Origin: Pseudomonas silesiensis
GTDB lineage: Bacteria > Pseudomonadota > Gammaproteobacteria > Pseudomonadales > Pseudomonadaceae
Reading direction: 5' to 3'
DNA: 64,000 nucleotides
Assembly: GCF_001661075.1 (NCBI RefSeq)
Contig: NZ_CP014870.1
Coordinates: 6,663,501-6,727,500, forward strand
Below the pieces are notes generated by a model. That model had not been told where the DNA came from and made no database searches. It saw only the letters and a list, made by a program, of their open reading frames with translations. The position numbers and the translations under genes were made by a program. Positions 25,014 to 41,849 of the stretch are shown in pieces. Each line of letters begins with the position of its first letter. The stretch's first letter is position 1.

Positions 25014-26018
25014 ATGAATTCCTCGACTTATCCCGCAGCCCAGCACGTCATGGTGCTCTACACCGGTGGCACCATCGGTATGCAAGCCAGCGCCCACGGC
25101 CTGGCCCCGGCGTCCGGTTTCGAAGCGCGTATGCGCGAGTACCTGGCCAGCCAGCCTGAGCTGGTGGTGCCGCAATGGCGCTTTCGCGAAATGTCGCCGC
25201 TGATCGACAGCGCCAACATGAGCCCGGCGTACTGGCAGCAACTGCGTGAAGCAGTGGTCGACGCTGTCGATGTACAAGGCTGCGACAGCGTACTGATCCT
25301 GCATGGCACCGACACGCTGGCCTACAGCGCTGCGGCCATGAGTTTTCAGTTGCTCGGACTGCACGCCCGCGTCGTCTTCACCGGCTCGATGCTGCCGGCC
25401 GGCGTGACCGACAGCGATGCCTGGGAAAACCTCAGCGGGGCCCTGGTCGCTTTGGGCCAGGGCCTGGCACCGGGTGTCCATCTGTACTTCCACGGCGAAC
25501 AACTGGACCCGACCCGTTGCGCGAAGGTTCGCAGTTTCGGTCGTCATCCCTTCAAGCGACTTGAGCGTCAGGGCGGTGGAATGAAGGCCACTTCGCTGCC
25601 AACGGAACTGACTTACCGCCAGAACAAGCAACTGGCAAAAGTCGGCGTGCTGCCATTGGTTCCCGGTATCGGCGCCGAGCAACTGGATGGTGTTCTGAAC
25701 AGCGGCATTCAAGGCCTGGTACTGGAGTGTTACGGCAGCGGCACGGGGCCGAGCGACAACCCGGAGTTTCTCGCCGCCCTTTCTCGAGCACGAGACAACG
25801 GTGTGGTGGTGGTTGCAATTACGCAGTGTCATGAAGGTGGCGTTGAGCTGGATGTTTATGAGGCGGGTAGCCGCTTGCGTGGTGCTGGTGTGCTTTCGGG
25901 CGGCGGCATGACCCGTGAAGCCGCGTACGGCAAATTGCACGGATTGCTCGGCACCGGACTCGACACCGCCGAAGTACGGCGCCTGGTCGAGCTCGACCTC
26001 TGTGGCGAACTCAGCTGA
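25014..26018 (+). CDS. type I L-asparaginase (cytoplasmic)
   Basis: 334 aa, no signal peptide. The catalytic Thr pair is visible: first site VLYTGGTIGM, second site ILHGTDTLAYSA with the Asp of the TDT motif. Later VFTGSMLPA and VLECYGSGTGP are typical of the cytoplasmic AnsA type. It hydrolyses asparagine to aspartate and ammonia, feeding AspA. CGGAGAACC serves as RBS. Confidence 0.93.
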   Translation: MNSSTYPAAQHVMVLYTGGTIGMQASAHGLAPASGFEARMREYLASQPELVVPQWRFREMSPLIDSANMSPAYWQQLREAVVDAVDVQGCDSVLILHGTDTLAYSAAAMSFQLLGLHARVVFTGSMLPAGVTDSDAWENLSGALVALGQGLAPGVHLYFHGEQLDPTRCAKVRSFGRHPFKRLERQGGGMKATSLPTELTYRQNKQLAKVGVLPLVPGIGAEQLDGVLNSGIQGLVLECYGSGTGPSDNPEFLAALSRARDNGVVVVAITQCHEGGVELDVYEAGSRLRGAGVLSGGGMTREAAYGKLHGLLGTGLDTAEVRRLVELDLCGELS

Positions 26019-26031
26019 CGCCACACAAACC

Positions 26032-26162
26032 CTTGTAGGAGCGAGCTTGCTCCGGGCGGCGTTCCGACGAAGCACCTGAAGGCGGCGCGTTCATCCAGGC
26101 AGCACGCGTTATCGTTAGCGTCCATCGCGAGCAATCGAGCGTCGACCGGCTGCTCCTACAGG
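26032..26162. repeat. diverged REP-type inverted repeat
   Basis: TGTAGGAGCGAGCTTGCTCC at the left and CGGCTGCTCCTACAGG at the right. The left half continues GGGCGGCGTTCCGACGA, which recurs at 27240-27256, so both belong to one repeat family. Confidence 0.75.
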
Positions 26163-26219
26163 TTCTCACCCGGCATATAACTTGCTGCGTTTCAGCCATC
26201 CCAAGGCTGGAAGCCACCC

Positions 26220-27218
26220 ATGCTTCACTCCCACCTCACCACTCTCAACGCCGTCTCCCTGGTACTAAACGCCTTTAAGGCCGACGGATTGTCCAGCGAG
26301 GCGCTACTGGCGGGCAGTGGCATCAGCGCCGCTGACCTGAACCGCGCAGACACGCGCATCACCACCAACCAGGAAATGCAGGTCTGCGCCAACGCCGTCG
26401 CGCTCAAGCGTGACATCGGCCTGGAACTGGGCCGGCGGATGCACGTTTCCTCCTACGGCATGCTCGGATATGCCCTGCTCACAAGTGCCACCTTCGGTGA
26501 CGCGTTACGCCTGGCGATGCGTTATCCGGCGCTGCTGGGAACACTTTTCGAGCTCGGTCTTGAGGACGACGGCGAGCGAATATGGTTCGTAGCCGCCGAT
26601 TACCGCGAAAATCCGGCGCTGGCCGTATTCAACGCCGAGTTCTGCCTGGTGTCGTTGAAAACCATCTGCGACGACCTGCTCGGCCATTCGTTGCCATTGT
26701 TGGCTGCGCGCTTCGAACATGCCGCGCCCGACTATGAAGCCACCTATGCAGAACACTTCAATTGCCCGCTGCACTTCAAGGCCCGTGACAATGCCTTCGC
26801 TTTCGACAAAAGCTGGCTTGACCAACCCTTGCCGCTTGCCGATGTCATCACCCATCAGGCCATGGCCGAACGCTGCCGCAAACAGAACTCCGAATTCACT
26901 GGGCGTCAGGCCTGGCTGGGACGGATTCGCCAGTTACTCCGCGCGCAATTGAATGCGGCGCCGGGGCTGGAGGGGTTGGCCGAGCAGATGAATTGTTCGG
27001 CGCGCACGTTGCGTCGGCATCTGAAGGACCTTGGGTGCAGTTATCAGGAATTGCTCGACGAATTGCGCTTCGAACAGGCCAAGCTCCTGCTGCGTGAGGA
27101 CCAGATGCCGATCTATCAGATTGCCGAGGCGCTGGGCTTCAGCGAGACGGCGAGCTTTCGTCATGCGTTTGTACGCTGGAGCGGCGTGGCGCCGAGTCAG
27201 TTCAGGCCGCATCGATAA
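26220..27218 (+). CDS. AraC-family regulator with Arabinose_bd-type N-terminal domain
   Basis: 332 aa. The N-terminal 200 aa (ALLAGSGISAADLNRADTRIT; HVSSYGMLGYALLTSATFGDAL) match the PF12625 type found in OruR and similar regulators. The C-terminal double helix-turn-helix (about 235-330; MNCSARTLRRHLKDLGCSYQELL, IYQIAEALGFSETASFRHAFVRWSGVAPSQFR) binds DNA. It precedes the polyamine genes in the same orientation, with REP repeats between, so control of them is possible but unproven. Confidence 0.92.
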   Translation: MLHSHLTTLNAVSLVLNAFKADGLSSEALLAGSGISAADLNRADTRITTNQEMQVCANAVALKRDIGLELGRRMHVSSYGMLGYALLTSATFGDALRLAMRYPALLGTLFELGLEDDGERIWFVAADYRENPALAVFNAEFCLVSLKTICDDLLGHSLPLLAARFEHAAPDYEATYAEHFNCPLHFKARDNAFAFDKSWLDQPLPLADVITHQAMAERCRKQNSEFTGRQAWLGRIRQLLRAQLNAAPGLEGLAEQMNCSARTLRRHLKDLGCSYQELLDELRFEQAKLLLREDQMPIYQIAEALGFSETASFRHAFVRWSGVAPSQFRPHR

Positions 27219-27219
27219 C

Positions 27220-27339
27220 CTGTGGGAGCGAGCTTGCTCCGGGCGGCGTTCCGACGATGGTCGCAAACGATAACGCGTATTTACTGATTAAACGCGCGGT
27301 GCTTTTGAGTCCATCGCGGGCAAGCCCGCTCCCACAGGG
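27220..27339. repeat. REP-type inverted repeat
   Basis: CTGTGGGAGCGAGCTTGCTCC at the left and CCATCGCGGGCAAGCCCGC...CCCACAGGG at the right. The left half shares GGGCGGCGTTCCGACGA with 26032-26162. Confidence 0.8.
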
Positions 27340-27505
27340 TCGGCACTCCAGGCCTCACGGGGGCATTCCTGCGCCAATAATAAGGGGCGAATTTCGGTCA
27401 ACTATTTTGGCCATATCGATCCCCTTTTGGCCTTTTCTGCCGTTCTCTGAAACGCCCCGCACCGCAAGACTGTGTTCAACCGAATCAGCCTGCGGAGAAC
27501 AAGAA

Positions 27506-28537
27506 ATGCTGACGATCTACTCGGATGATCACCACCTGCACCACGGCCGTTGTGAATTGATCGACGGACAACTCAAGCCCTGCTTTGAAATGCCCTCGCG
27601 CGCAGACCATGTGCTGGCACGGGTGCAAAAGCAGAACCTTGGCGCCGTAGAAGCACCCAAGGATTTTGGCCTCGACCCAATCGCACGCATCCACAGCCGC
27701 GACTATCTCGAATTCTTCAAAGGTGCCTGGGCGCGCTGGACCGAGTTCAATACCGATGGCGACCTGCTGCCCTATACCTGGCCAGCCCGCACCCTGCGCC
27801 CGATCATCCCCACCAGCCTGCACGGCCAGCTCGGCTATTACAGCTTCGACGGCGGCGCGCCGATCACGGCCGGTACCTGGCAAGCGGCGTACAGCGCAGC
27901 GCAAGTGGCCCTCACTGCCCAGGCTGAAATCCAGCGCGGCGCCCGCAGTGCCTTCGCCCTGTGCCGTCCACCTGGTCATCACGCTGCCAGTGATCTGATG
28001 GGTGGTTATTGCTACCTCAACAACGCCGCCATCGCCGCTCAGGCCTTCCTCGACCAAGGCCACAAAAAGGTCGCGATCCTCGATGTCGACTACCATCACG
28101 GCAACGGCACCCAATCGATTTTCTACGCGCGCAGCGACGTGCTCTTCACGTCGATCCACGGACATCCGGAAGCCGAGTTTCCGTTCTTCCTCGGCTATGA
28201 AGATGAGCTGGGTGAAGGCGCGGGCGAAGGCTTCAACTTCAACTACCCTTTGCCCGCGGGCAGCGGCTGGGACAGCTGGAACTCCGCTCTGGAGCAGGCC
28301 TGCAAGGAGATCGAACAGTACTGTGCGGACATCGTTGTCGTTTCCCTGGGCGTCGACACCTTCAAGGACGACCCTATTTCCCAATTCAAGCTCGACAGCC
28401 CGGATTACCTGGCGATGGGCGAGCGCATCGCACGCCTCGGCAAGCCGACGTTGTTCGTGATGGAAGGCGGTTATGCGGTAGAGGAAATCGGCATCAATGC
28501 CGTGAACGTTCTCGAAGGTTTTGAAAGCGCTCAATGA
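27506..28537 (+). CDS. acetylpolyamine amidohydrolase (class II HDAC-like)
   Basis: 343 aa, the length of Pseudomonas AphA/AphB enzymes. Histone-deacetylase-fold motifs are complete: CRPPGHHAA (catalytic His pair), DVDYHHGNGTQ (zinc Asp and His), SLGVDTFKDDP (second zinc Asp) and VMEGGYAVEEIG. It removes acetyl groups from acetylputrescine, acetylcadaverine or related amines in the cytoplasm. GGAG precedes the ATG. A polyamine-binding protein gene follows after 12 bp, the same pairing as PA1409-PA1410 of P. aeruginosa (remembered). Confidence 0.93.
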   Translation: MLTIYSDDHHLHHGRCELIDGQLKPCFEMPSRADHVLARVQKQNLGAVEAPKDFGLDPIARIHSRDYLEFFKGAWARWTEFNTDGDLLPYTWPARTLRPIIPTSLHGQLGYYSFDGGAPITAGTWQAAYSAAQVALTAQAEIQRGARSAFALCRPPGHHAASDLMGGYCYLNNAAIAAQAFLDQGHKKVAILDVDYHHGNGTQSIFYARSDVLFTSIHGHPEAEFPFFLGYEDELGEGAGEGFNFNYPLPAGSGWDSWNSALEQACKEIEQYCADIVVVSLGVDTFKDDPISQFKLDSPDYLAMGERIARLGKPTLFVMEGGYAVEEIGINAVNVLEGFESAQ

Positions 28538-28549
28538 GGAAGTGGACCA

Positions 28550-29665
28550 ATGCATCAGCTCAAGCGTTATATCGCTCCCGCACTCTTCCCTGCAGTGCTG
28601 GGCGCCACAGTGCTCTGTGGTGCCGTTCAGGCTGAAGAACGAACCTTGCGCGTCTACAACTGGTTCGACTACATCACGCCCAAGGCGCTGGAAGATTTCA
28701 AGACCCAGAACACCCAGACCAAGTTGGTCTACGACATCTTCGACACCAACGAAGCACTGGAAGCCAAATTGCTGACCGGCAACTCCGGCTACGATGTGGT
28801 GGTGCCGTCCAACGTGTTCCTCGCCAAACAGATTGAAGCCGGCGTGTTCCAGCCCCTGGATCGCAGCAAGCTGCCAAACTGGAACCACCTCGATCCCAAG
28901 CTGATGAAGCTGATCGAAACCAACGACCCCGGCAATAAATTCGCCGTGCCCTACATGTACGGCACTATCCTGATCGGCTTCAACCCGGACAAGGTCAAGG
29001 CCGCCTTGGGCGACAACGCCCCGGTGGACAGTTGGGACCTGATCTTCAACGAAGAGAACATCAGCAAACTCAAGCAGTGCGGCGTCGCCCTGCTCGACTC
29101 GCCGTCGGAGATCCTGCCGCTGGCCCTGCAACACCTCGGCCTGGACCCCAACAGCAAGAAGCCGGCGGACTACGCGAAGGCGGAAGCCTTGTTGATGAAG
29201 ATTCGTCCGTACGTCACTTACTTTCACTCATCCAAATACATGGCCGACATCGCCAACGGCGACATTTGCGTCGCGGTCGGTTACTCCGGCAGCTTTTCCC
29301 AGGCCGCCAACCGCGCCAAGGAAGCCAAAAATGGCGTGATCGTCGACATGCGCCTGCCAAAAGAAGGCGCACCGATCTGGTTCGACATGCTTGCCATTCC
29401 CAAAGGCGCAAAGAACACGGAAGACGCCTACACCTTCATCAACTATTTGCTGCAACCCCAGGTGATCGCGCCGGTGAGCGACTTCGTCGGCTATCCGAAC
29501 CCGAACAAGGACGCCACGGAGAGCGTGGATCCTGCGATCCGTAATAATCCCAACCTGTACCCGACCGAAACGGCGATGGGGACGCTCTACACCCTGCAAC
29601 CGCTGCCCCGCGATGCCGAGCGTGCGCGAACCCGGGCCTGGACCAAGATCAAATCAGGAACCTGA
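28550..29665 (+). CDS. polyamine ABC transporter substrate-binding protein (PotF/SpuD-like)
   Basis: 371 aa periplasmic receptor with signal peptide ending near CGAVQA. The start of the mature protein, RTLRVYNWFDYITPKALEDF, and GYDVVVPSNVFLAKQIEAGVFQPLD, VPYMYGTILIGFN and IWFDMLAIPKGAKN are typical of the putrescine/spermidine family. No permease or ATPase gene follows, so it must use a transporter encoded elsewhere. Coupling to the acetylpolyamine hydrolase suggests it delivers acetylated or free polyamines. Confidence 0.94.
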   Translation: MHQLKRYIAPALFPAVLGATVLCGAVQAEERTLRVYNWFDYITPKALEDFKTQNTQTKLVYDIFDTNEALEAKLLTGNSGYDVVVPSNVFLAKQIEAGVFQPLDRSKLPNWNHLDPKLMKLIETNDPGNKFAVPYMYGTILIGFNPDKVKAALGDNAPVDSWDLIFNEENISKLKQCGVALLDSPSEILPLALQHLGLDPNSKKPADYAKAEALLMKIRPYVTYFHSSKYMADIANGDICVAVGYSGSFSQAANRAKEAKNGVIVDMRLPKEGAPIWFDMLAIPKGAKNTEDAYTFINYLLQPQVIAPVSDFVGYPNPNKDATESVDPAIRNNPNLYPTETAMGTLYTLQPLPRDAERARTRAWTKIKSGT

Positions 29666-29759
29666 GTTCCTGACTCATGAGCTGGTTCGCCACGGGCTCT
29701 ACGGAACGACCTGAGCCTGCCGTTGAAAACCGACACGCAATCCTGGCGTGGTGCAAGAC

Positions 29760-31310
29760 TCATGTGCGCCAGGCTCTGTCCAAACGCCGAAGTGCTTCGA
29801 TGATGGCGACTTCCGGCACCGCCGCAAAACCCAGGACCAGCCCGGCGCGCTGGTCCTGCGGTTGTTGCGTGTCCGGTAACCAGTAGCTGCTCAGGGCATT
29901 GATCTCGACATCGACGCTGGCCGCTTTTTCGATCAGCGCCTGCTCTCGGGCCTGAGACGCGACCGCAACCGTCAGGTGCAGCCCTGCCGCGACAACCGGC
30001 AGGCTGCCGACACCCGGGATACCCTGGGGCCAGCCGGACAGCAATGCGTTACGCCGGCTCAGCGCGGCTCGCCGCATGCGCCGGATGTGTCGCTGGAAAT
30101 GCCCGGCAGCCATGAACTCGGCCATTACCGCCTGAGTGCTGACCTCCGAATGCCGCACGTCCACTGCGCGACGCTGGGAGAACGCGTCCACCAATGCCGG
30201 CGGCAACACCAGATAACCCAGGCGCAATGCCGGGAAGGCGACCTTGCCGAAGGTCCCGACGTACAGCACCCGCCCCTGCCGATCGAGTGCCGCCAAGGGT
30301 GCCAATGGCGCGCCGCTGTAACGGTACTCGCCATCGTAGTCATCCTCCACGATCCAGCCTTGGGTGCATTCAGCCCAGGCCAGCAGCTCCAGGCGGCGTG
30401 CCAGACTCATGACCACCCCGGTCGGGTACTGATGCGACGGCGTGACATAAGCCAGACGACAATCACCGAGCCCCGCCAATTCGGTGCAATCGATACCCTC
30501 ATTGTCTACCGCTATCCCGTGCAATCGCGCCCCGGCCACAGCGAATGCATGCCCCGCCGCGCGATACCCCGGATTCTCGATCGCTACCCCGTCGCCCGGC
30601 TCCACCAGCAGCTGTGCACAAAGGCTGATCCCCTGCTGCGCGCCACTGGTGATCACTATTTGCTCAGCCGTGCACTGCATGCCCCGCGAACTGCGCAGGT
30701 ACGCCGCAATCAGGCCGCGCAAGCGCCCATCGCCTGCCGGGTCGCCGTAACAGAGTTGCTGTAAGTCCGGTTTACGCCAGAAAGCCGCGCTCAGCTTGGC
30801 CCACACCTCGAACGGAAACAGATCAAAGGCCGGAACGCCGACCCGAAAAGCCCGTGGCGGTCCACTTGGCGGCGTTGGCAAATGATTCCTTTCTACTCGA
30901 TCCAGGGCCCCACTGTGGATAACTTTACTGGATGAAACCACAGGTAAATCCAGCCAATTTGTGGATAAGGCTGTGGGTAACCCTGTTGACAACCCTGTGG
31001 ATACTTTTGTGGATAATTTTTTTGCCGGCAACACCGCTTGAGGCAGTTGTGCGACATAGGTGCCGTCGCCAACACGCCCTTCGATAAAGCCCTCGGCGTA
31101 GAGCTGATCGTAGGCCCGGACCACGCTGTTACGGGAAATCGCCAACGCAGCCGCCAAATCGCGACTGGCCGGTAATCGCGTGCCGCTGGCCAGTCTGCCG
31201 TCGAGCACACGTAACCGTAACGCCTGGTACAACTGACGGCTCAAACCCTGACGGCGATCAAGTTCTATGCCCGCAGGATTGAACGACAAGGACAGTGAAT
31301 CACCGGTCAT
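29760..31310 (-). CDS. MocR-type (GntR plus aminotransferase fold) regulator
   Basis: 516 aa. N-terminal GntR winged helix (about 15-85; GTRLPASRDLAAALAISRNSVVRAYDQLYAEGFI), a linker (about 90-150), then a fold-type I aminotransferase-like domain with the PLP lysine in VGTFGKVAFPALRLGYL and the Asp of IVEDDYDGEYRY. Such regulators sense pyridoxal phosphate or an amino-compound aldimine. It is divergent from a PaiB-like gene. The linker contains a 12-bp tandem repeat coding for LST-type tetrapeptides (30960-31019). Confidence 0.93.
   Translation of the reverse strand: MTGDSLSLSFNPAGIELDRRQGLSRQLYQALRLRVLDGRLASGTRLPASRDLAAALAISRNSVVRAYDQLYAEGFIEGRVGDGTYVAQLPQAVLPAKKLSTKVSTGLSTGLPTALSTNWLDLPVVSSSKVIHSGALDRVERNHLPTPPSGPPRAFRVGVPAFDLFPFEVWAKLSAAFWRKPDLQQLCYGDPAGDGRLRGLIAAYLRSSRGMQCTAEQIVITSGAQQGISLCAQLLVEPGDGVAIENPGYRAAGHAFAVAGARLHGIAVDNEGIDCTELAGLGDCRLAYVTPSHQYPTGVVMSLARRLELLAWAECTQGWIVEDDYDGEYRYSGAPLAPLAALDRQGRVLYVGTFGKVAFPALRLGYLVLPPALVDAFSQRRAVDVRHSEVSTQAVMAEFMAAGHFQRHIRRMRRAALSRRNALLSGWPQGIPGVGSLPVVAAGLHLTVAVASQAREQALIEKAASVDVEINALSSYWLPDTQQPQDQRAGLVLGFAAVPEVAIIEALRRLDRAWRT
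30960..31019. repeat. five 12-bp tandem repeats with DnaA-box-like 9-mers
   Basis: Units start at 30960, 30972, 30984, 30996 and 31008: TGTGGATAAGGC, TGTGGGTAACCC, TGTTGACAACCC, TGTGGATACTTT, TGTGGATAATTT. The first nine bases are the complement of TTATCCACA exactly in units 1 and 5 and with one or two changes in the others. A further exact copy lies at 30914-30922. The array is in frame within the MocR gene. Confidence 0.9.
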
Positions 31311-31327
31311 GGCAATGGACCTATGAA

Positions 31328-31360
31328 ATTGGTCATTAATGGCTCTTACAACAGACCAAT
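31328..31360. promoter_or_regulatory. candidate MocR operator
   Basis: Inverted repeat ATTGGTC (31328-31334) and GACCAAT (31354-31360), half-sites 26 bp apart, in the 90-bp divergent region between the MocR and PaiB-like genes. Confidence 0.5.
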
Positions 31361-31400
31361 AGCCTGCCTAGGATGAGCACATTCGCCAAGGAAAATCTCC

Positions 31401-32024
31401 ATGTACACGCCAAGCAACTTTGCCATCAACGATTTGCATGACTTGCAACAGCAGATCCTCGACACCCGCCTTGCCATGCTGGTGACCCATGGGGAGCAGG
31501 GCCTGCAGGCCAGTCATCTGCCATTGCTGCTTCGCCCCGACCAAGGCCCGAACGGCACACTCTACGGTCACTTCGCCCGGGCCAATCCGCAATGGAAAGC
31601 ACTGCAGGACGGCGCTCAAGCGCTGGTGATTTTCGCCGGTGCCGAGGCTTACGTCAGCCCGGGGTTTTACCCGAGCAAAGCCGAACACGGCAAAGTGGTG
31701 CCGACCTGGAACTATGTCGCTGTGCACGCTTACGGCACGGCCGAGGTTTTCACCGACGCTGATCGCCTGCGCGACCTGGTCAGTGCGCTGACGGATCGTC
31801 ATGAAGCAGGCCGCAACAATCCGTGGAAGGTCGCGGATGCGCCCGCGGAGTACATTGACGCAATGCTCAAGGCCATCGTCGGTTTCGCCTTGCCGATCGA
31901 GCGCCTGGAAGGTAAGCGCAAACTCAGCCAGAACCGCAGCCCCGCAGACATTGCCGGCGTACGCGAGGGGCTCGCCGCCAGCCCCGATGTGCATGACCAG
32001 GCTCTCGCCCATTTGATGCGTTAA
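31401..32024 (+). CDS. PaiB-like FMN-binding negative regulator family protein
   Basis: 207 aa. MYTPSNFAINDLHDLQQQI, the FARANPQWKAL segment, YVSPGFYPSKAEHGKVVPTWNYVAVHAYG and the late LEGKRKLSQNRSPADIAGV are hallmarks of the PaiB/FMN-binding (PF04299) family. Some members regulate, others bind flavin or heme; the role here is unknown. It leads an operon with two GNAT acetyltransferases, like the PaiA-PaiB association known from Bacillus. Confidence 0.92.
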   Translation: MYTPSNFAINDLHDLQQQILDTRLAMLVTHGEQGLQASHLPLLLRPDQGPNGTLYGHFARANPQWKALQDGAQALVIFAGAEAYVSPGFYPSKAEHGKVVPTWNYVAVHAYGTAEVFTDADRLRDLVSALTDRHEAGRNNPWKVADAPAEYIDAMLKAIVGFALPIERLEGKRKLSQNRSPADIAGVREGLAASPDVHDQALAHLMR

Positions 32025-32033
32025 GGAATGAAC

Positions 32034-32501
32034 ATGAGTCAGATCGAGATTCGCCCGGTCATCGCCGATGACCATGCTGCCTGGTTGCCGTTGTGGCAGG
32101 CCTATCTGCGTTTCTATAACACCGAATTGCCCGAGGCCGTCACTCAAAGCACCTGGCAGCGCATGCTCGACCCTGGCGAACCGACCCACTCGGCGCTGGC
32201 CTGGGCCGGTGGCCAAGCGGTAGGCATGGTGAACTTCATTTACCATCGTTCGAATTGGAGCATCGAAAACTCCTGCTACCTGCAGGACTTGCTGGTAACG
32301 CCGCAAACCCGCGGCACCGGCGTCGGCCGCAAGCTGATTGAGTACGTGTACGCCACAGCCAGGGAGGACGGTTGCTGCAAGGTCCACTGGCTGACCCACG
32401 AAACCAACGCCACCGCGATCCAGCTTTACGAGCGCATCGCCGAACGGCCTGGTTTCATCCAGTTTCGCAAAGCCATTCAAGGTTCAAGGAGCACAGCATG
32501 A
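32034..32501 (+). CDS. GNAT-family N-acetyltransferase
   Basis: 155 aa single GNAT domain. The acetyl-CoA loop is VTPQTRGTGVGRKLIEYVYATA; the final strand WLTHETNATAIQLYERIAERPGF is also typical. AAGGA is correctly spaced for the ATG at 32034; ATG 32028 is too close to it. It begins 9 bp after the PaiB-like gene and overlaps the next gene by 4 bp. The substrate is unknown; polyamines or amino acids are possible given the neighbours. Confidence 0.9.
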   Translation: MSQIEIRPVIADDHAAWLPLWQAYLRFYNTELPEAVTQSTWQRMLDPGEPTHSALAWAGGQAVGMVNFIYHRSNWSIENSCYLQDLLVTPQTRGTGVGRKLIEYVYATAREDGCCKVHWLTHETNATAIQLYERIAERPGFIQFRKAIQGSRSTA

Positions 32502-33169
32502 CGACTTCACTCGCGGACTGGAAAGGCGTCCCGGCACCAACGGTTCAAACGATCGAAGGGCGCTTCATCCGCCTGGAAAAACTTGACCCGGCACGCCACG
32601 GCGACGGTTTGTGGAATGCTTTGGAAGGCCCGGGCGCCGATCCGAAGCTTTGGGACTATTTACCTTACGGACCATTCCCGGAGCGCGGTGCTTTCAATGA
32701 TTGGCTGAATAATCATGCGGCCAACAGCGACCCATACTTCTTCAGCGTGATCGACCGCGCCAGCGGCGAGGTGCAAGGCATCCTCAGCCTGATGTCGATC
32801 GTCCCTTCCCAGGGTCGCATCGAGATCGGCCACGTAACGTTCGGTGCGCCGATGCAGCGTTCGCCGAAAAGTACCGAGGCGGTTTACTTGCTGGCCAAGG
32901 CATCCTTTGAGCTGGGTTACCGGCGCCTGGAGTGGAAATGCAACAACGGCAATGCCCGCTCCAAGTACGCGGCTGAGCGGTTGGGATTCAGTTTTGAAGG
33001 GGTGTTCCGCCAGCACATGGTGGTCAAGGGGCAGAACCGGGACACGGCGTGGTATTCGATTCTGGACTCGGAATGGCCGGCAATTGCTGCGGGGTTTGAA
33101 CAGTGGCTGTCCGATGAGAACCAGACGGAATCGGGGCAGGTGAAAACACTGGTTGAGTGCCGCCAGTAA
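32498..33169 (+). CDS. GNAT-family N-acetyltransferase (RimJ/RimL-like)
   Basis: 223 aa. IEGRFIRLEKLDPARHGDGLW, then a degenerate acetyl-CoA loop region (QRSPKSTEAVYLLAKASFEL) and YRRLEWKCNNGNARSKYAAERLGFSFEGVFRQHMVVKGQNRDTAWYS match the RimJ/RimL acetyltransferase type. The start overlaps the previous stop as ATGA, with AAGGAG upstream, so translation is coupled. The substrate is unknown. Confidence 0.9.
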   Translation: MTTSLADWKGVPAPTVQTIEGRFIRLEKLDPARHGDGLWNALEGPGADPKLWDYLPYGPFPERGAFNDWLNNHAANSDPYFFSVIDRASGEVQGILSLMSIVPSQGRIEIGHVTFGAPMQRSPKSTEAVYLLAKASFELGYRRLEWKCNNGNARSKYAAERLGFSFEGVFRQHMVVKGQNRDTAWYSILDSEWPAIAAGFEQWLSDENQTESGQVKTLVECRQ

Positions 33170-33187
33170 TCTTTGGCGTCTGACAGG

Positions 33188-33309
33188 ACGCCTTCGCGGG
33201 CAAGTCGGGTCGCCGCACCGCTCGCTCCTACAAGGTTTTGCGTTGATTTATGGTCAACCGAAAAACCTGTAGGAGCGAGCGGTGCGGCGATCCAACTTGC
33301 CCGCGAATG
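33188..33309. repeat. long REP-type inverted repeat
   Basis: The left arm CTTCGCGGGCAAGT...CGCCGCACCGCTCGCTCCTACA and right arm TGTAGGAGCGAGCGGTGCGGCG...CTTGCCCGCGAA pair over about 39 bp with few mismatches. Confidence 0.85.
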
Positions 33310-33312
33310 GCA

Positions 33313-34224
33313 TCACGCTAATTTCTGGGCCAACACCGCAATATGTTCCGGCCCGATTCCGCAGCAACCGCCCAAATGGCTGGCCCCGCGCTTTTGCCAA
33401 TCGGCTGCCCACCGCAGATAACCCGGAGGGTCGAGATCGTCGCGCAACGGGTCCAGCCCGTCATTGGCCGTGGCCTCTTTCGGCTGCGGCGGGAAGGCAT
33501 TTGCGTACGCGCCGATGTGAATCTTCACACCCAAGCGTTCGAAGGTTTCCCGCGCCGCATCGATCGCAGCACCAATCACTTCCGGCTGACTGCAATTGAA
33601 CAGCAAGGTCTCGACGCCCAACCCAGCCGCCACTGCAGCGGCCTCAGCCACCGGTTCACCCGAGCGCAAACGTGGCACTTCGTCAATGTCTTCATCCTTC
33701 AAGGTAAACGACAACCAGAACGGCTTCCCATCCTTCGGCAGACCGGCATGGATTGCTCGAGCCTCAACGATCGAGCTCTGGGTTTCGGCCAGCCACAGGT
33801 CGACATGAGGCGCCAGGCCATTGACCAGAGGCGTCAGCAGCTCAGTCACCCGGGCAGCATCGAACAGGTCCGGGCGATAGGAGCCGAACAACGGTGGCAA
33901 TGAACCGGCCACGCGCACCGGTTTGCCCGCCGCATCGACTGCACGACGGGCCAACTCACCGGCCAACCCTGCAAGCGCCTGGCCTTCAGCGGCGAAACGC
34001 GCTTCGCCGATATGGAACGGCACCACTGCGTAACTGTTGCTGGTGATCACGTTCGCACCACTTTCGATATAAGCTGCGTGCACCGCTTCCACAGCTTGCG
34101 GCGCTTCGCTTAACGCTAGCGCGGACCACTCAGGCTGCCTGAACGGCGCACCTTGACGTTGCAACTCACGACCCATGCCGCCATCCAGTATTACCGTGTT
34201 TGCGCCCATATGCTTTTCACTCAT
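33313..34224 (-). CDS. homocysteine S-methyltransferase family protein
   Basis: 303 aa single-domain zinc methyltransferase. VILDGGMGRELQRQG opens the barrel; the zinc ligands are C in LFNCSQPEVI and the pair in SHLGGCCGIGPEHI. Stand-alone members (MmuM type) transfer a methyl from S-methylmethionine or betaine-like donors to homocysteine. The start is uncertain: ATG 34224 or ATG 34209; neither has a strong RBS. It is divergent from an amino-acid type ABC receptor gene, which suggests transport of its donor (inference). Confidence 0.9.
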   Translation of the reverse strand: MSEKHMGANTVILDGGMGRELQRQGAPFRQPEWSALALSEAPQAVEAVHAAYIESGANVITSNSYAVVPFHIGEARFAAEGQALAGLAGELARRAVDAAGKPVRVAGSLPPLFGSYRPDLFDAARVTELLTPLVNGLAPHVDLWLAETQSSIVEARAIHAGLPKDGKPFWLSFTLKDEDIDEVPRLRSGEPVAEAAAVAAGLGVETLLFNCSQPEVIGAAIDAARETFERLGVKIHIGAYANAFPPQPKEATANDGLDPLRDDLDPPGYLRWAADWQKRGASHLGGCCGIGPEHIAVLAQKLA

Positions 34225-34321
34225 AAGCTTATGAAAATAACTCACTATCAGAGTCGTTCTTATAACTATTTAATATGCACCACCCGGTTAATAACAACCT
34301 CTTTTTTTTCAGGGATCAACT

Positions 34322-35143
34322 GTGAAATTTCAACCACTGCTGGCCCTGGGCCTGACGATTTTGGCTGTCTCTGCCCAAGCCTTTGCGGGCGCTACTCTGG
34401 ATCGCATCGAGAAAAAGAAAGAGCTGGTGGGCGTATTGATGGAAAGCTATCCGCCCTTCTCATTCCTCAACGATCAAAACCAGCTCGACGGTTTCGATGT
34501 CGATGTGGCCAAGGCCGTGGCAGACAAACTGGGCGTCAAACTGCGTCTCGAAACGCCGTCCTGGGATGTGATCGCCGCCGGTCGCTGGAGCGGGCGTTAT
34601 GACATCTGCATCTGCTCCATGACCCCGAGCAAAGCCCGCGCTGAAGTCTTCGACTTCCCGGTCGAGTACTACGCCTCCCCTGCGGTGATTGTGGTCAATG
34701 CCAAGAACGACAGCATTCACAGCGCCAAGGACCTGAGCGGCAAAAAAGTCGGCCTCACGAGCGCCTCCAGTTATGAAAGCTACCTGAACAAAAATCTGGT
34801 GATCGAAGGCGCCGAAGACACCCAATTACAGTACCCGTTCGAGAATGTGCAGATCGCCCCGTATGACACCGACAACGTCGCGTTCCAGGATTTGGGCCTG
34901 GGCGCTGGCGTGCGTCTGGATGCGATTCTCACCAACCTGGTGACCGCGCAACCACGCCTGAATGAAGATCAGCGCTTCAAGCTCGCCGGTGAGCCGCTGT
35001 ACTCAGAACCAAACTCGGTGGCCATCGAAAAAGGCGACGCCCAGTGGGACGCCAAAGTACGTGATGTGTTTGCCCAGCTGAAACAGGACGGTACCTTGAG
35101 CAAGCTGTCGCAAAAATGGATCGGCGCCGACATCAGCAAATGA
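34322..35143 (+). CDS. amino-acid type ABC transporter substrate-binding protein
   Basis: 273 aa periplasmic receptor of family 3 (SBP_bac_3) with a signal peptide ending near VSAQAFA. LDRIEKKKELVGVLMESYPPFSF, FDVDVAKAVADKLGVKLRLE, RYDICICSMTPSKARAEVFDFP and SKLSQKWIGADIS are typical. The start is GTG with AGGGA upstream. It overlaps the permease gene by 4 bp. Confidence 0.92.
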   Translation: MKFQPLLALGLTILAVSAQAFAGATLDRIEKKKELVGVLMESYPPFSFLNDQNQLDGFDVDVAKAVADKLGVKLRLETPSWDVIAAGRWSGRYDICICSMTPSKARAEVFDFPVEYYASPAVIVVNAKNDSIHSAKDLSGKKVGLTSASSYESYLNKNLVIEGAEDTQLQYPFENVQIAPYDTDNVAFQDLGLGAGVRLDAILTNLVTAQPRLNEDQRFKLAGEPLYSEPNSVAIEKGDAQWDAKVRDVFAQLKQDGTLSKLSQKWIGADISK

Positions 35144-35976
35144 CTTCTTTCCCCAAACCACCTCAGCCGCCGCAACCGGTGGCTGAGTCATTACTGCAAC
35201 GGATTTTCGGATTCCGTACCCGGCTGTATCTGACTTGGGCGGCGATGCTCGGTTTGTTCGCGAGTTTCTTCCTGAGCTTCGACCTGAAGTACTCGATCAT
35301 CCTCGACAAACTACCGAACCTGATCGGCCTGCAACTGGCACCCAACGGCTTTCTGCAAGGCGCAGCGCTGACGTTATTCTTGTGCCTGTGCTCGATCGTG
35401 GCGTCGTCGCTGTTGGGTTTCATCACCGCTTTGGCGCGGCTGTCGAAAAGCGCGGTGGCGTTCGGTATCGCGAGCTTCTATGCCTCGTTCTTTCGGGGCA
35501 CACCGCTGCTGATTCAGATTTTGCTGATTTACCTCGGCCTTCCACAACTCGGTATCGTGCCCGGCGCCATTGCCGCCGGCATCATTGCCCTGTCGCTGAA
35601 CTACGGCGCCTACCTGAGCGAAATCTTCCGCGCCGGCATCCTCGGCGTCCCCCATGGCCAACGCGAAGCGTCGCTGGCTCTGGGCATGGGCAAAACCGTG
35701 ATCTTCTGGCGCGTCACCCTGCCCCAGGCCATGCGCACCATAATCCCGCCCACCACCAACCAGTTCATCTCCATGCTCAAAGACTCATCACTGATTTCAG
35801 TGATGGGCGTTTGGGAGGTGATGTTCCTGGCGCAATCGTATGGGCGCTCGAGCTATCGCTATATCGAGATGCTCACGACGGCGGCGATTATTTATTGGTT
35901 GATGTCGATCGGGCTGGAGCTGATTCAGGCGCGGATGGAGCGGCATTATGGGAAGGCGTATTTGAGCCGCAGCTAG
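35140..35976 (+). CDS. amino-acid type ABC transporter permease (HisM/GlnP-like)
   Basis: 278 aa. A short proline-rich N-terminus, then membrane helices; the EAA loop is VPHGQREASLALGMGKTVIFWRVTLPQAMRTIIPP, typical of polar amino-acid permeases. The start overlaps the receptor stop as ATGA. No ATPase gene follows, and the next genes face the other way, so the ATP-binding partner must be elsewhere. Confidence 0.92.
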   Translation: MTSFPKPPQPPQPVAESLLQRIFGFRTRLYLTWAAMLGLFASFFLSFDLKYSIILDKLPNLIGLQLAPNGFLQGAALTLFLCLCSIVASSLLGFITALARLSKSAVAFGIASFYASFFRGTPLLIQILLIYLGLPQLGIVPGAIAAGIIALSLNYGAYLSEIFRAGILGVPHGQREASLALGMGKTVIFWRVTLPQAMRTIIPPTTNQFISMLKDSSLISVMGVWEVMFLAQSYGRSSYRYIEMLTTAAIIYWLMSIGLELIQARMERHYGKAYLSRS

Positions 35977-36021
35977 GTTAAAAGCCAAACGGCTGCTCCT
36001 GCAGGGGCTGTGTCGAATCCA

Positions 36022-36050
36022 TAAAAAAAGGGGAGCACATGCCCCCCCGA
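36022..36050 (-). terminator. rho-independent terminator after oadA
   Basis: On the minus strand GGGG...GCATGTGC...CCCC is followed by seven T residues, 31 bp beyond the oadA stop. Confidence 0.85.
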
Positions 36051-36080
36051 GGTTTAAAGCGTTGAATCGAGGTTGTTAAC

Positions 36081-37889
36081 TCAGCCTTCGATCTCGATCA
36101 GGATTTCGCCCGGGTTCACCCGGTCGCCCTTGGCCACGTGGATGGCGGTGACTTTACCGGCGATGGCTGCCTGGACTTCGGTTTCCATCTTCATCGCTTC
36201 GGTGATCAGTACGGACTGGCCGGCTTTGACCATGTCGCCTTCCTTGACCAGCACGTCGACGATATTGCCTGGCATGGTGGTGCTGACGTGGCCCGGTGCA
36301 GTGGCTTGCTTGCGCTTGCTGCTGCCGCCGCCGACGAATTCGTTCAGCGGTTCAAACACCACTTCTTCCGGCATGCCGTCGATGGACAGGTAGAAGTGAC
36401 GCTTGCCTTCCGCCTTGACGCCGACACCGGTGATGTCGACGCGATAGGTTTCGCCGTGGACGTCGATGACGAACTCGGTCGGCACGCCTTCGCCACCGGC
36501 CGAGGTCACGCCGCCCGCTTCCGGAATTGGCAACAGCACTTCAGGCGTCAGGGTGCCGGCTGCACGTTCTTCGAGAAACTTGCGCCCGATGTCCGGGAAC
36601 ATGGCATAGGTCAGCACGTCTTCTTCAGACTTGGCCACGGCGCCGATTTCGGCACGCAGTTTGGTCATTTCCGGCTTGAGCAAGTCAGCTGGACGGACGT
36701 CGATCACTTCTTCGCTGCCGATCGCCTGGCGACGCAGTTGTTCGTTCACGGTACCCGGTGCCTTGCCGTAGCCACCTTGCAGGTAAAGCTTCACTTCGTT
36801 GGTGATGGTCTTGTAGCGCTCGCCGGCCAGCACGTTGAAGAACGCCTGGGTGCCGACGATCTGCGAAGTCGGGGTCACCAGCGGCGGGAAGCCGAGGTCT
36901 TCACGAACACGCGGGATTTCGGCAAGCACTTCGCCCATGCGGTTCAGAGCGCCCTGCTCTTTCAACTGGTTGGCCAGGTTGGAAATCATCCCCCCCGGTA
37001 CCTGGTTGACTTGAACGCGGGTGTCGACGGCGGTGAACTCGCTTTCGAACTGGTGGTACTTCTTGCGCACGGCGTAGAAGTACAGACCGATCTCTTGCAG
37101 CAGCTCCAGGTTCAGGCCGGTGTCGAATTCGGTGCCTTTAAGGGCAGCGACCATCGATTCGGTGCCTGGGTGGCTGGTGCCGGATGCGAAGCTGGAGATC
37201 GCGGTGTCGATGTGGTCGGCACCGTTTTCGATGGCCTTGAGTTGGCACATGGTGGCCATGCCAGCGGTGTCGTGCGAGTGAATGAACACTGGCAGCGACT
37301 GCTCGGATTTCAATGCCTTGACCAGTTCGCCAGTGGCGTACGGAGTCAGCAGGCCGGCCATGTCCTTGATTGCCACCGAGTCGCAACCCATGGCTTCCAT
37401 TTGCCGGGCCTGGGCCACGAACGCGTCGATGGTGTGCACCGGGCTGGTGGTGTAGGCGATGGTGCCCTGGGCGTGTTTGCCCGCCGCTTTTACCGCTTCG
37501 ATGGCCGTACGCAGGTTACGCACGTCGTTCATGGCGTCGAAGATGCGGAACACGTCGATGCCGTTGACCGCAGCCTTGGCGACGAAGGCTTTGACCACGT
37601 CGTCGCTGTAGTGGCGGTAGCCCAGCAGGTTCTGGCCGCGTAGAAGCATTTGCAGGCGAGTGTTAGGCAACGCCGCACGCAACTGGCGCAGGCGCTCCCA
37701 CGGATCTTCTTTCAGAAAGCGTACGCAGGCGTCGAACGTCGCGCCGCCCCAGCACTCAAGCGACCAGTAGCCGACTTTGTCGAGCTTGTCGCAGATCGGC
37801 AGCATGTCTTCGGTGCGCATGCGGGTGGCGAGCAGCGATTGGTGGGCGTCGCGCAGGATTGTGTCGGTAACGTGGATTTTCTTAGTCAT
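36081..37889 (-). CDS. oadA: pyruvate carboxylase subunit B / oxaloacetate decarboxylase alpha type
   Basis: 602 aa. The N-terminal carboxyltransferase barrel (VTDTILRDAHQSLLATRMRT; FIHSHDTAGMA for metal binding) is followed by a PYC/OADA domain and a C-terminal biotinyl domain with the biotin lysine in EAMKMETE. With subunit A it makes oxaloacetate from pyruvate, bicarbonate and ATP. No OadB/OadG sodium-pump subunits are nearby, which favours pyruvate carboxylase. GAGGAA precedes the ATG. It starts 11 bp after pycA. Confidence 0.96.
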   Translation of the reverse strand: MTKKIHVTDTILRDAHQSLLATRMRTEDMLPICDKLDKVGYWSLECWGGATFDACVRFLKEDPWERLRQLRAALPNTRLQMLLRGQNLLGYRHYSDDVVKAFVAKAAVNGIDVFRIFDAMNDVRNLRTAIEAVKAAGKHAQGTIAYTTSPVHTIDAFVAQARQMEAMGCDSVAIKDMAGLLTPYATGELVKALKSEQSLPVFIHSHDTAGMATMCQLKAIENGADHIDTAISSFASGTSHPGTESMVAALKGTEFDTGLNLELLQEIGLYFYAVRKKYHQFESEFTAVDTRVQVNQVPGGMISNLANQLKEQGALNRMGEVLAEIPRVREDLGFPPLVTPTSQIVGTQAFFNVLAGERYKTITNEVKLYLQGGYGKAPGTVNEQLRRQAIGSEEVIDVRPADLLKPEMTKLRAEIGAVAKSEEDVLTYAMFPDIGRKFLEERAAGTLTPEVLLPIPEAGGVTSAGGEGVPTEFVIDVHGETYRVDITGVGVKAEGKRHFYLSIDGMPEEVVFEPLNEFVGGGSSKRKQATAPGHVSTTMPGNIVDVLVKEGDMVKAGQSVLITEAMKMETEVQAAIAGKVTAIHVAKGDRVNPGEILIEIEG

Positions 37890-37900
37890 TGGAATATTCC

Positions 37901-39316
<1,416 letters not shown>

Positions 39317-39453
39317 TTGGAGGTTCCCTTGAGCCGGTGGTACCCACGACCTGCAATGCCAGGTCGACGCGTGACCAAATGTTTCAATTTAGTCGCAGCC
39401 CCACACTAGCCCCCACAAGGGATTAACAAAAATGATTAATTATTGGGTCAGGC

Positions 39454-39469
39454 ATAAGTAAAGACTTAT
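39454..39469. promoter_or_regulatory. candidate LysR operator between pycA and lysR
   Basis: ATAAGT-AAAG-ACTTAT is a perfect 6-4-6 inverted repeat in the AT-rich divergent region 39317-39506, 38 bp before the lysR ATG. Confidence 0.6.
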
Positions 39470-39506
39470 AGTTGATTTACCAGCCTGCGGACAGAGAGCC
39501 AGAATT

Positions 39507-40469
39507 ATGCGTAAGTCCTTGATGCGTATGACATTGCGTCAATTGCAGATCTTCAATGAGGTCTGTGACCTGAGGTCTTACAGCCGCGCAGCCGATGAAA
39601 TGTCGCTCACACAACCTGCCGTCAGCCTGCAGATTCGTCAACTCGAGGAGCTGATCGGCCAACCTTTGTTCGATTACGTCGGCAAAAAACTCTACATGAC
39701 CGAAGCCGCTGAAGCGCTTCAGCGGGCCAGCCGGGACATTTTCGGCCGCCTGGAAAACCTCGATATGCAACTCTCGGACATGCAGGGTTCGCTGCAGGGC
39801 CAGCTGAAACTGGCGGTGGAATCCAGCGCCAAGTATTTCGTGCCGCATCTGTTTGCTGCGTTCAAACGCCAGCATCCCGAGGTGAACCTGCAACTGACGG
39901 TGGTCAACCGTGGGCAGGTGATTCGACGTCTTTCCGATAATCGCGATGACCTGGTGATCATGTCCATGGTCCCGCAGGATATGGGACTGGAATTCCTGCC
40001 GTTCCTCAACAACCCGATCGTCGCCGTGGCGCCACCGGATCATCCGCTGTGTCACATGGGCCCTTTACGCCTGCAGGATCTCGAGCCTTACACATTATTG
40101 CTGCGCGAGAATGGCTCCGGGACGCGGCTGGCCTGCGAAGAGTATTTCAAGGAGAAACGTGTGCACTTCAACCAGACCCAGGAAGTCTCGTCAGCCGAAG
40201 CACAACGGGAATGTGTGTTGGCGGGTCTGGGCGTGGCGCTGTTGACGCGCCACGCCCTGAACCTTGAGTTGGCGACCGGCGGCCTGATCGAATTGCCGGT
40301 CGAAGAGCTGCCGCTGTATCGCAGTTGGTGCCTGGTACAGGCCAAGGCCAAACGGCTGTCGCCGGTGGCGCACGCATTCCTTGCGTTTATCCGCAGCGAG
40401 CGGCTGCAGATCAGCGCCCTGGTTGAGCGTTTCGACGGGAAGCTACGGGCGCTGCCTGCCAGAAGTTGA
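39507..40469 (+). CDS. LysR-family regulator of pyruvate carboxylase (PycR-like)
   Basis: 320 aa. HTH in MTLRQLQIFNEVCDLRSYSRAADEMSLTQPAVSLQIRQLEELIG; the effector domain begins about 95 and resembles CbbR/CysB-type LysR proteins. It is divergent from pycA-oadA, with a perfect dyad between them, as for PycR of P. aeruginosa. Its 3' end overlaps a small minus-strand gene by 59 bp. Confidence 0.93.
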   Translation: MRKSLMRMTLRQLQIFNEVCDLRSYSRAADEMSLTQPAVSLQIRQLEELIGQPLFDYVGKKLYMTEAAEALQRASRDIFGRLENLDMQLSDMQGSLQGQLKLAVESSAKYFVPHLFAAFKRQHPEVNLQLTVVNRGQVIRRLSDNRDDLVIMSMVPQDMGLEFLPFLNNPIVAVAPPDHPLCHMGPLRLQDLEPYTLLLRENGSGTRLACEEYFKEKRVHFNQTQEVSSAEAQRECVLAGLGVALLTRHALNLELATGGLIELPVEELPLYRSWCLVQAKAKRLSPVAHAFLAFIRSERLQISALVERFDGKLRALPARS

Positions 40470-40623
40470 GTTGCAGATCATCAGGAAAATCGCCGATCTC
40501 TGCGAGAAGCTGGCGGCGTTCGCAGCGATCTTCGATGGCGCGGCGAAATTCCATGCGGCGCTGGTCTTCCTGTTGGCGACGGGTTCTGACGGCGCTGTTG
40601 CGTTCTTCGTAGGGCTGGGCCAT
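40411..40623 (-). CDS. small Arg/Glu-rich conserved protein
   Basis: 70 aa, MAQPYEERNSAVRTRRQQEDQRRMEFRRA in its first half, highly charged and probably helical. GGGAG lies seven bases before ATG 40623, a strong start signal. Its C-terminal end is encoded antisense to the last codons of the LysR gene. I believe similar small proteins occur in other Pseudomonas, but I cannot name a function. Confidence 0.65.
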   Translation of the reverse strand: MAQPYEERNSAVRTRRQQEDQRRMEFRRAIEDRCERRQLLAEIGDFPDDLQLNFWQAAPVASRRNAQPGR

Positions 40624-40728
40624 TTCGAGTCTCCCAAGGCGATGACGGGAGTTACAGGATGGGCGCGGGGGATGACGGTTTGGCGGCGAGTCGGTTACAG
40701 GCAGATGAACGTTGTCGTTCTCGAGGAC

Positions 40729-40840
40729 GCCTTCGCGGGCAAGCCCGCTCCCACAGAGATCGACTGTGTTGCACAAATTGTGTGTACACCACAGAACCTG
40801 TGTGCGAGCTTGCTCGCGATTAAGGTCGGAACGACCTTAC
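40729..40840. repeat. REP pair with hairpin tail
   Basis: CTTCGCGGGCAAGCCCGC (left, from 40731) and GTGTGCGAGCTTGCTCGCGA (right, to 40820), different REP subtypes facing each other, then the hairpin AAGGTCGGAACGACCTT at 40822-40838, next to the rpiR stop. Confidence 0.75.
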
Positions 40841-40847
40841 GACGACG

Positions 40848-41714: not shown

Positions 41715-41759
41715 AAGGTTCGACTCTTTGTTATCGGCAGATGCCGGTGATGTAGCAAG

Positions 41760-41778
41760 CTTGTAGTTATACTACAAG
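41760..41778. promoter_or_regulatory. RpiR-type palindromic operator
   Basis: CTTGTAGTTATACTACAAG is a perfect 8-3-8 palindrome. Its TTGTAGT...ACTACAA arms resemble the TGTARTT-type site known for HexR. It lies just upstream of the rpiR gene. Confidence 0.75.
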
Positions 41779-41849
41779 AATCGGCTTTTTGCCTGCTCAA
41801 TGCGTAACTCGATGTCCCCATTTCACGCCCTGCGCGCTCCATGTAGCCC

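What the first reader, a model, noticed from the sequence alone, without database searches (positions are those of the whole stretch)
30914..31019. Exactly spaced 12-bp array of DnaA-box-like sequences inside a MocR gene
Five units begin every 12 bp from 30960 to 31008, each built on TGTGGATAA, the complement of TTATCCACA. Two are exact 9-mers, a third exact copy lies at 30914, and the rest differ by one or two bases. On uniform base use about 0.5 copies of this 9-mer are expected in 64 kb on both strands; three fall within 103 bp here. The array encodes LST-type tetrapeptides in the linker between the DNA-binding and aminotransferase domains. It may be a simple in-frame repeat expansion, or a DnaA-binding or titration site placed in coding DNA. 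Copy-number change would alter linker length without a frameshift.
Basis: partly seen in the sequence, partly recalled or inferred. Interest (0 to 1): 0.7.

Follow-up and report, generated by a model that had tools for sequence, protein, structure and literature searches.

The report
DnaA-box array inside a gene
A row of likely binding sites for the protein that starts DNA replication is hidden inside the coding sequence of an unrelated regulator gene near the replication origin of many Pseudomonas species, and evolution has kept the sites even where the gene itself was lost.

Summary
In the linker of a PdxR-like MocR gene, 69 kb from dnaA, five TTATCCACA-type sites stand 12 bp apart and a sixth lies exactly 46 bp further on, in another reading frame; all point the same way. 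In 800 kb scanned nothing matches it (4 mismatches of 45; next separate place 14; background best 18-20). It is kept at DNA level: 117 of 138 Pseudomonas mocR genes have it (3-7 mismatches), the other 21 score 20-26. Synonymous recoding gives 0.87 exact boxes where 200 exist. Array and protein come apart both ways. Where the gene is absent, a remnant or frame-split at its ori-proximal place (G064, G058, G101), the array stays. Where an intact gene moved far from dnaA (G150, G170), it is gone. One exception, G029, keeps it at 1.34 Mb. Exact boxes crowd the origin; none lies in 2.8 Mb of this chromosome's far side. Best reading: an ori-proximal DnaA-binding locus, most likely a titration or inactivation sink akin to datA or B. 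subtilis DnaA-box clusters, written into coding DNA. Not a DARS. DnaA binding and replication effect are inferred.

The parts
29760..31310 (-). host gene, MocR-type regulator (GntR DNA-binding domain + aminotransferase-like domain), 516 aa
   Evidence: NCBIfam PLP_TF_PdxR 418 bits, cut-off 320
31008..31016 (-). unit 1, TTATCCACA (LST), exact
   Evidence: in orthologs mostly CTATCCACA, 92 of 101 within one mismatch
30996..31004 (-). unit 2, GTATCCACA (VST), one mismatch
   Evidence: 81 of 101 within one mismatch
30984..30992 (-). unit 3, TTGTCAACA (LST), two mismatches; weak in the orthologs too
   Evidence: exact in 0 of 101; ends TCAACA in 62 of 101
30972..30980 (-). unit 4, TTACCCACA (LPT), one mismatch
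   Evidence: 95 of 101 within one mismatch, exact in 4
30960..30968 (-). unit 5, TTATCCACA (LST), exact; near-invariant anchor
   Evidence: exact in 96 of 101; exact in 115 of 117 array bearers
30927..30935 (-). possible weak site TCATCCAGT, 33 bp after unit 5, 13 bp before box 6
   Evidence: its TCC codon is conserved in orthologs; weak evidence
30914..30922 (-). box 6, TTATCCACA read as V-I-H in the +1 frame, exactly 46 bp after unit 5
   Evidence: exact at that spacing in 81 of 101; 88 of 117 array bearers

Best explanation
The array is a cis-acting DnaA-binding locus of the chromosome that lies in the tolerant linker region of a MocR gene. Two consensus boxes (unit 5, box 6) anchor DnaA; ATP-DnaA then fills the weaker, co-oriented units 4-1 head to tail at 12-bp steps. 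Lying mostly 55-140 kb from dnaA it is copied soon after initiation, so its doubling removes DnaA from the free pool, by titration or by promoting ATP hydrolysis in the oligomer, and helps to prevent re-initiation. Shown here: the sites, their fixed geometry, DNA-level constraint, origin-proximal place, and retention independent of the protein. Inferred: DnaA binding, cooperativity, and the effect on initiation.
For: Exact consensus in units 5 and 6 and fixed 12/46-bp geometry. 200 exact boxes in 99 linkers against mean 0.87, maximum 5, in 300 synonymous recodings. Leu is TTA in 67% of array codons against 2.5% elsewhere in the gene, Thr ACA 96.5% against 7.8%. Within the coding part of the gene the array and the stretch up to box 6 are the peak of codon constraint. 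Box 6 is conserved in a different frame. 117 of 138 genomes; 96 array genes share a contig with dnaA, median 90 kb, 94 of 96 antisense to it. Nine of 149 genomes gave no mocR match: the three on the array side of a DnaA tree (G064 gene absent, G058 remnant, G101 split over two frames) all keep an array, 46-103 kb from dnaA; the six on the other side have none. Array lost in the moved genes of G150 (2.11 Mb from dnaA) and G170. Own DnaA domain IV aligns without gaps to E. coli DnaA 1J1V over 92 residues, with identical KRRSRSVARPRQ and GRDHTTVLHACRKI. E. coli oriC arrays are likewise co-oriented weak boxes 2-4 bp apart next to a consensus box (passages). Boxes crowd the origin: 43 exact in 400 kb against mean 0.9 for 200 anagrams, 0 in 400 kb opposite.
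Against: No binding or replication data. G029 keeps the array at 1.34 Mb from dnaA, although its nearest relative G105 (96% identical in the aminotransferase part) has the usual place, so the move may be recent. The two losses after relocation may be one event (shared 24-bp deletion; the tree does not decide). G101's frame split could be a sequencing error. 20 mocR-bearing genomes of the other side of the genus live without the array. Box 6 is missing in many P. putida-type orthologs. No exact IHF site was found. Two equally dense clusters near the origin could do the same job, and in B. [quoted passage not shown]
Confidence: 0.62

Rival explanations
1. Protein-level repeat: LST-type tetrapeptides are selected as a linker, and the DNA likeness to DnaA boxes is a by-product.
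For: Units are in frame and the LST motif is common to orthologs.
Against: Codons rare elsewhere in the gene; box 6 in another frame at exactly 46 bp; arrays kept without the gene; full-length genes with a different linker on the other side of the genus and after relocation.
Confidence: 0.03
2. DnaA bound inside mocR acts as a transcription roadblock, so that MocR level follows the DnaA or replication state.
For: Sites lie about 0.3 kb into the gene, on its coding strand.
Against: Array persists where the gene is absent or a remnant and decays where the intact gene has moved, the reverse of what a mocR switch predicts.
Confidence: 0.07
3. datA-like site: the ATP-DnaA oligomer on the array actively promotes ATP hydrolysis, rather than only binding DnaA.
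For: datA also has two high-affinity boxes plus a weak one, all in one direction (passage), and moving datA near the terminus disturbs initiation (passage).
Against: 0 of 117 arrays have an exact IHF consensus within 150 bp; 57 have a one-mismatch match, most often overlapping unit 5 (38 genomes). datA is non-coding.
Confidence: 0.25
4. A chromosome-organising or segregation site, or a site for another protein that reads the same 9-mer near the origin.
For: Conserved distance and orientation to dnaA.
Against: The 9-mer is the R1/R4-type DnaA box, which a machine-learning study also found as the DnaA-box motif of Pseudomonas oriC (PMC7174414, passages), and it clusters directly upstream of dnaA here.
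Confidence: 0.08

Closest known systems
B. subtilis oriC-proximal DnaA-box clusters (DBCs; Okumura 2012, seen only as described in PMC5295017, passages)
   Same: Clusters outside oriC; removal of all six advances initiation, suggesting sensitivity to DnaA bound there.
   Different: Here the array sits in a coding linker, at a strict 12-bp period, and is conserved over a large part of a genus. The B. subtilis effect was strong only with all six removed.
Intragenic DnaA-binding regions of B. subtilis in vitro (PMC4447404, passages)
   Same: A table there lists binding peaks inside genes, with 2-5 putative DnaA sites each in the rows seen.
   Different: The passages show no tandem 12-bp array and no conservation test; DnaA binding is measured there, only inferred here.
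E. coli datA (PMC5742627, PMC5295017, PMC4585315, passages)
   Same: High-affinity and low-affinity boxes in one direction; place relative to oriC matters.
   Different: datA is non-coding and needs an IHF site; no exact IHF site found here; hydrolysis untested.
E. coli DARS1/DARS2 (passages)
   Same: A short DnaA-box cluster outside oriC.
   Different: DARS needs a head-to-head pair of boxes; all boxes here point one way.
Left half of the E. coli oriC DnaA-oligomerisation region (passages)
   Same: Co-oriented weak boxes a few bp apart next to a consensus box.
   Different: An unwinding element was not looked for; the oriC-like cluster of this genome lies upstream of dnaA (6763432-6763587).
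Origin-biased DnaA boxes of E. coli and Salmonella (Olivi 2025, PMC12371093, abstract, results section 6 and passages)
   Same: Boxes accumulate towards oriC, read there as a titration layout.
   Different: In this Pseudomonas no exact box lies in 2.8 Mb opposite the origin; that paper's main text has 0 hits for 'Pseudomonas' and 'intragenic'.

Membership tests
DARS | DnaA boxes I and II head to head | tested here: not met
   All six sites have one orientation; requirement
datA | High-affinity plus low-affinity DnaA boxes in the same direction | tested here: met
   requirement. Affinity judged by sequence only
datA | Single IHF-binding site | tested here: inconclusive
   0 of 117 exact, 57 of 117 with one mismatch within 150 bp; the commonest such place (38 genomes) overlaps unit 5
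datA | Non-coding locus | tested here: not met
   Inside the open mocR frame in the window; outside an intact gene only where mocR is lost
datA | Promotes hydrolysis of DnaA-bound ATP | not testable with these tools
   Needs biochemistry
oriC-proximal DnaA-box cluster (titration site) | Several DnaA boxes clustered near, but outside, oriC | tested here: met
   69 kb from dnaA; one of the three densest 150-bp clusters in 400 kb around the origin
oriC-proximal DnaA-box cluster (titration site) | Binds DnaA in the cell and delays initiation | not testable with these tools
   Needs ChIP and cell-cycle assays
oriC | DnaA boxes with an AT-rich unwinding element or DnaA-trio | not tested
   Only the boxes were studied; the cluster upstream of dnaA is the likelier origin
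MocR / PdxR-type regulator (host gene) | GntR domain plus aminotransferase-like domain | tested here: met
   pyridoxine control not tested

The most novel reading that the evidence does not exclude
Much of Pseudomonas has its own dedicated replication-control locus, an oligomer-forming DnaA array that works as the genus's counterpart of datA, and it is written into the open reading frame of an unrelated gene. It is one node of a set of conserved ori-proximal DnaA sites, many of them in coding DNA, whose upkeep depends on nearness to oriC.
Probability: 0.35. Interest if true: 0.86.

Novelty: new variant of a known kind. Interest (0 to 1): 0.76.

Why it matters
How Pseudomonas holds initiation to once per cycle is, to my knowledge (recalled), much less worked out than in E. 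coli. This gives a precise, 103-bp, genetically removable candidate whose boxes can be taken away without touching the protein, so the long-argued titration model can be tested in another lineage. It also shows a clear case of a chromosomal site dictating protein sequence and codon choice in a gene with no known part in replication, with natural experiments in both directions.

Tried and rejected
Chance and base composition: rejected by shuffles, anagram words and the period scan. Simple repeat expansion: rejected by constant unit number and out-of-frame box 6. A general habit of 12-bp spacing in this genome: one search found 21 loose 12-bp pairs (control 1), four of them in this array, but tight same-strand pairs near the origin have many spacings, so only this array is a 12-bp one there. 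DARS: rejected on orientation. IHF site: searched, not convincing. Rfam: no match in 29500-32500. Intergenic-only placement of boxes: 30 of 43 exact boxes near the origin fall in rough gene calls covering 87% of the DNA, so boxes are somewhat, not wholly, kept out of genes. Papers: ten searches, seen as listings with abstract beginnings; no listed title or abstract start names a Pseudomonas datA/DARS equivalent or a conserved intragenic array; (DnaA boxes, Pseudomonas, coding region, titration) returned 0. Intragenic DnaA binding as such is in print for B. subtilis. Most subscription papers are not in that library, so this is no proof that the array is unpublished.

Dropped rows: one search lost 9 of 110 loci to a motif filter. 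They were read apart: eight show the linker array in translation, and L066 shows units 1, 4 and 5 at the right spacing. One search used 76 rows. One search examined 138 of 140 genomes with a match (G103 and G167 not fetched). One search dropped 5 of 139 rows. Loci L039-L068 and L069-L148 come from two collections and partly repeat species. One search kept the best 80 of 585 relatives. Chromosome lengths of several complete genomes were rounded to 0.1 Mb, so those distances are rough by up to about 50 kb.

Full report
CHECK. The gene is 29760-31310 on the minus strand, a 516-aa protein with GntR and aminotransferase-like domains, above the NCBIfam cut-off for PdxR. Read on the gene's coding strand the sites are TTATCCACA, GTATCCACA, TTGTCAACA, TTACCCACA, TTATCCACA at 12-bp steps, then TTATCCACA 46 bp after the fifth. 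The first five encode LST-like triplets in frame; the last is read as Val-Ile-His in another frame. In a scan of 400 kb around the origin and 400 kb opposite for five co-oriented boxes at any period from 9 to 20, this array scores 4 mismatches of 45; the next separate place scores 14, and the best of each period in the far region is 18-20.

PLACE. The window is 6663501-6727500 of a 6.82-Mb single contig. dnaA lies at 6763670, so the array (6694414-6694516) is 69 kb upstream of it. The genome has 121 exact TTATCCACA against 20 for the reversed word. One search lists the first 100 in order and the rest: no exact copy lies between 1.642 and 4.439 Mb, 41% of the chromosome. In 400 kb at the origin there are 43 exact copies (200 anagram words: mean 0.9, maximum 5); in 400 kb opposite there are none. 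A second complete genome, G015, has 133 exact copies (reversed word 19) and none between 2.06 and 4.11 Mb in the ordered list of its first 100. The three densest 150-bp clusters in the origin region are the mocR array, a cluster just upstream of dnaA, and one 21 kb from dnaA.

CONSERVATION IS OF DNA, NOT PROTEIN. Among 101 orthologous linkers unit 5 is exact in 96 and box 6 is exact, at exactly 46 bp, in 81, although linker length and the residues between vary. Two of the 101 have no array (L068, L088). Unit 3 is never exact: a weak site is kept weak. Recoding 99 array linkers with synonymous codons at the frequencies of the rest of the gene gave 0.87 exact boxes on average (maximum 5 in 300 runs); 200 are there. 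For the window's own linker, 3 exact boxes were reached in 0 of 20000 recodings. The codons are those the gene otherwise avoids: TTA for Leu, ACA for Thr; third-position G+C is 39% in the array and 74% elsewhere. In a codon alignment of 76 orthologs the 7-codon windows of highest codon constraint lie in the array (up to 2.2 bits; gene mean 0.47) or on the way to box 6. Windows at alignment positions 3-7 also score high (1.6-1.8); they lie mostly before the start codon, since the frame had been extended upstream.

GENUS SURVEY. Of 149 Pseudomonas genomes 140 have the gene at E <= 1e-150. In 138 examined the result is two-peaked: 117 arrays with 3-7 mismatches of 45 and 21 at 20-26. Of the 117, unit 5 is exact in 115 and box 6 in 88. 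In 96 the gene shares a contig with dnaA: median distance 90 kb, 5-95% range 55-139 kb, 94 antisense to dnaA. Of the 21 without array, 20 are orthologs at 67-75% identity, 17 of them aligning only from residue 122 or later; the nine of them put into a DnaA tree stand apart from all eleven sampled array bearers at one 100/98 branch (99/98 in a smaller tree). The remaining one is G150.

ARRAY AND PROTEIN COME APART BOTH WAYS. (a) Protein without array. G150 has an 88% identical MocR, 2.11 Mb from dnaA on one contig, with no array. G170 (P. putida ASAD, L088) has an 88% identical MocR on a 1.45-Mb contig other than its 0.70-Mb dnaA contig; the dnaA contig follows the window's gene order but lacks the block 26011-41893. 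In both, 24 bp are gone from the linker and no box within one mismatch is left in the gene, while the rest of the protein is normal. Both nest among array bearers. The shared deletion suggests one event. (b) Array without protein. Nine of 149 genomes gave no mocR match. G064 has no recognisable mocR in 20 kb, yet a five-unit array (TTATCCACA, GTATCCACA, TTATACCCA, TTACACACA, TTATCCACA at 12 bp) beside the usual neighbour acetyltransferase gene, 53 kb from dnaA. G058 has only remnants of mocR, but four units at 12 bp, about 103 kb upstream of dnaA. G101 has mocR split over two frames and a weaker array (9 mismatches of 45) 46 kb upstream of dnaA; its assembly is 86% complete, its DnaA branch is long and the split could be a sequencing error, so it counts for less. 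The other six (G012, G014, G027, G085, G096, G139) have no such array: G012 and G014 matched the two-unit pattern loosely but score 19-20 in the five-unit test, the rest did not match. In a DnaA tree of 30 genomes the three array keepers fall on the array side of the 100/98 branch and all six others on the no-array side. So wherever mocR was lost on the array side in this sample, the array stayed. Among array-side genes with known place, 95 within 300 kb of dnaA have the array and none lacks it; of three far ones (G029, G150, G170) two lack it. G029 is the exception: array kept at 1.34 Mb; its nearest relative G105 has the gene at the usual place.

MECHANISM. The genome's DnaA domain IV aligns without gaps to E. 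coli DnaA 1J1V, identical in KRRSRSVARPRQ and GRDHTTVLHACRKI; that these stretches contact the box is recalled. E. coli ATP-DnaA fills co-oriented weak boxes 2-4 bp apart, stimulated by a consensus box (passages). The array has this layout (3-bp gaps, consensus box at the end), so a head-to-tail DnaA filament anchored at unit 5 is the natural inference. Box 6 could anchor a second DnaA. The position near oriC, the decay after relocation, and the indifference to the host gene argue for a function in the DnaA budget rather than in mocR expression. Whether it is passive titration, as proposed for E. coli (PMC12371093) and discussed for B. subtilis clusters (PMC5295017), or datA-like inactivation cannot be told by sequence. 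No exact IHF site is present. It is not a DARS, which needs head-to-head boxes (PMC10380432, passage).

NOVELTY. DnaA-box clusters outside oriC, origin-biased boxes and DnaA binding inside genes (B. subtilis, PMC4447404, passage) are known. In ten searches of an open-access library (listings) I found no report of a tandem DnaA array inside a gene conserved across a genus, or of a Pseudomonas titration locus. The kind is known; the coding placement with genus-wide upkeep, the strict 12-bp design and the two-way natural experiments are new to my reading. One search, a capped list, shows several other box pairs recurring at fixed spacing in the genus, so this array is probably one node of a larger conserved set.

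Noticed in passing
window 53074-53279: Two exact DnaA boxes in inverted orientation 197 bp apart; G170 has a pair with the same spacing and orientation at C1:542731/542928.
   Followed up: partly
G000:C1:6742692-6743016 (L191): Tightest DnaA-box cluster of the origin region, 5 boxes in 124 bp, between what look like a DeoR-type regulator gene and a glmU gene (by eye from translations), 21 kb from dnaA.
   Followed up: partly
G000:C1:6470000-6470035: Direct pair of exact boxes 27 bp apart; by eye some 50 rows show the same spacing with varying middle sequence, possibly another conserved coding site (reads V-D-K...V-D-K on the other strand).
   Followed up: no
AAGTTATCCACA).
   Followed up: no
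G000 whole chromosome: Exact TTATCCACA is absent from 1.64-4.44 Mb, a stronger origin bias than I know of elsewhere (recalled); G015 is similar.
   Followed up: partly
L065, L122 (mocR linker): An insert of roughly 20-25 aa just before the array, array intact; the peptide looks like a translated REP element (recalled, not tested).
   Followed up: no
L134, L140, L143 at 4326-4334 and 4431-4439: Two exact boxes on the opposite strand at identical places in the 3' part of three P. putida-type mocR genes.
   Followed up: no
G018:C1:5752972-5754501: mocR match holds one in-frame TGA, array still present.
   Followed up: no
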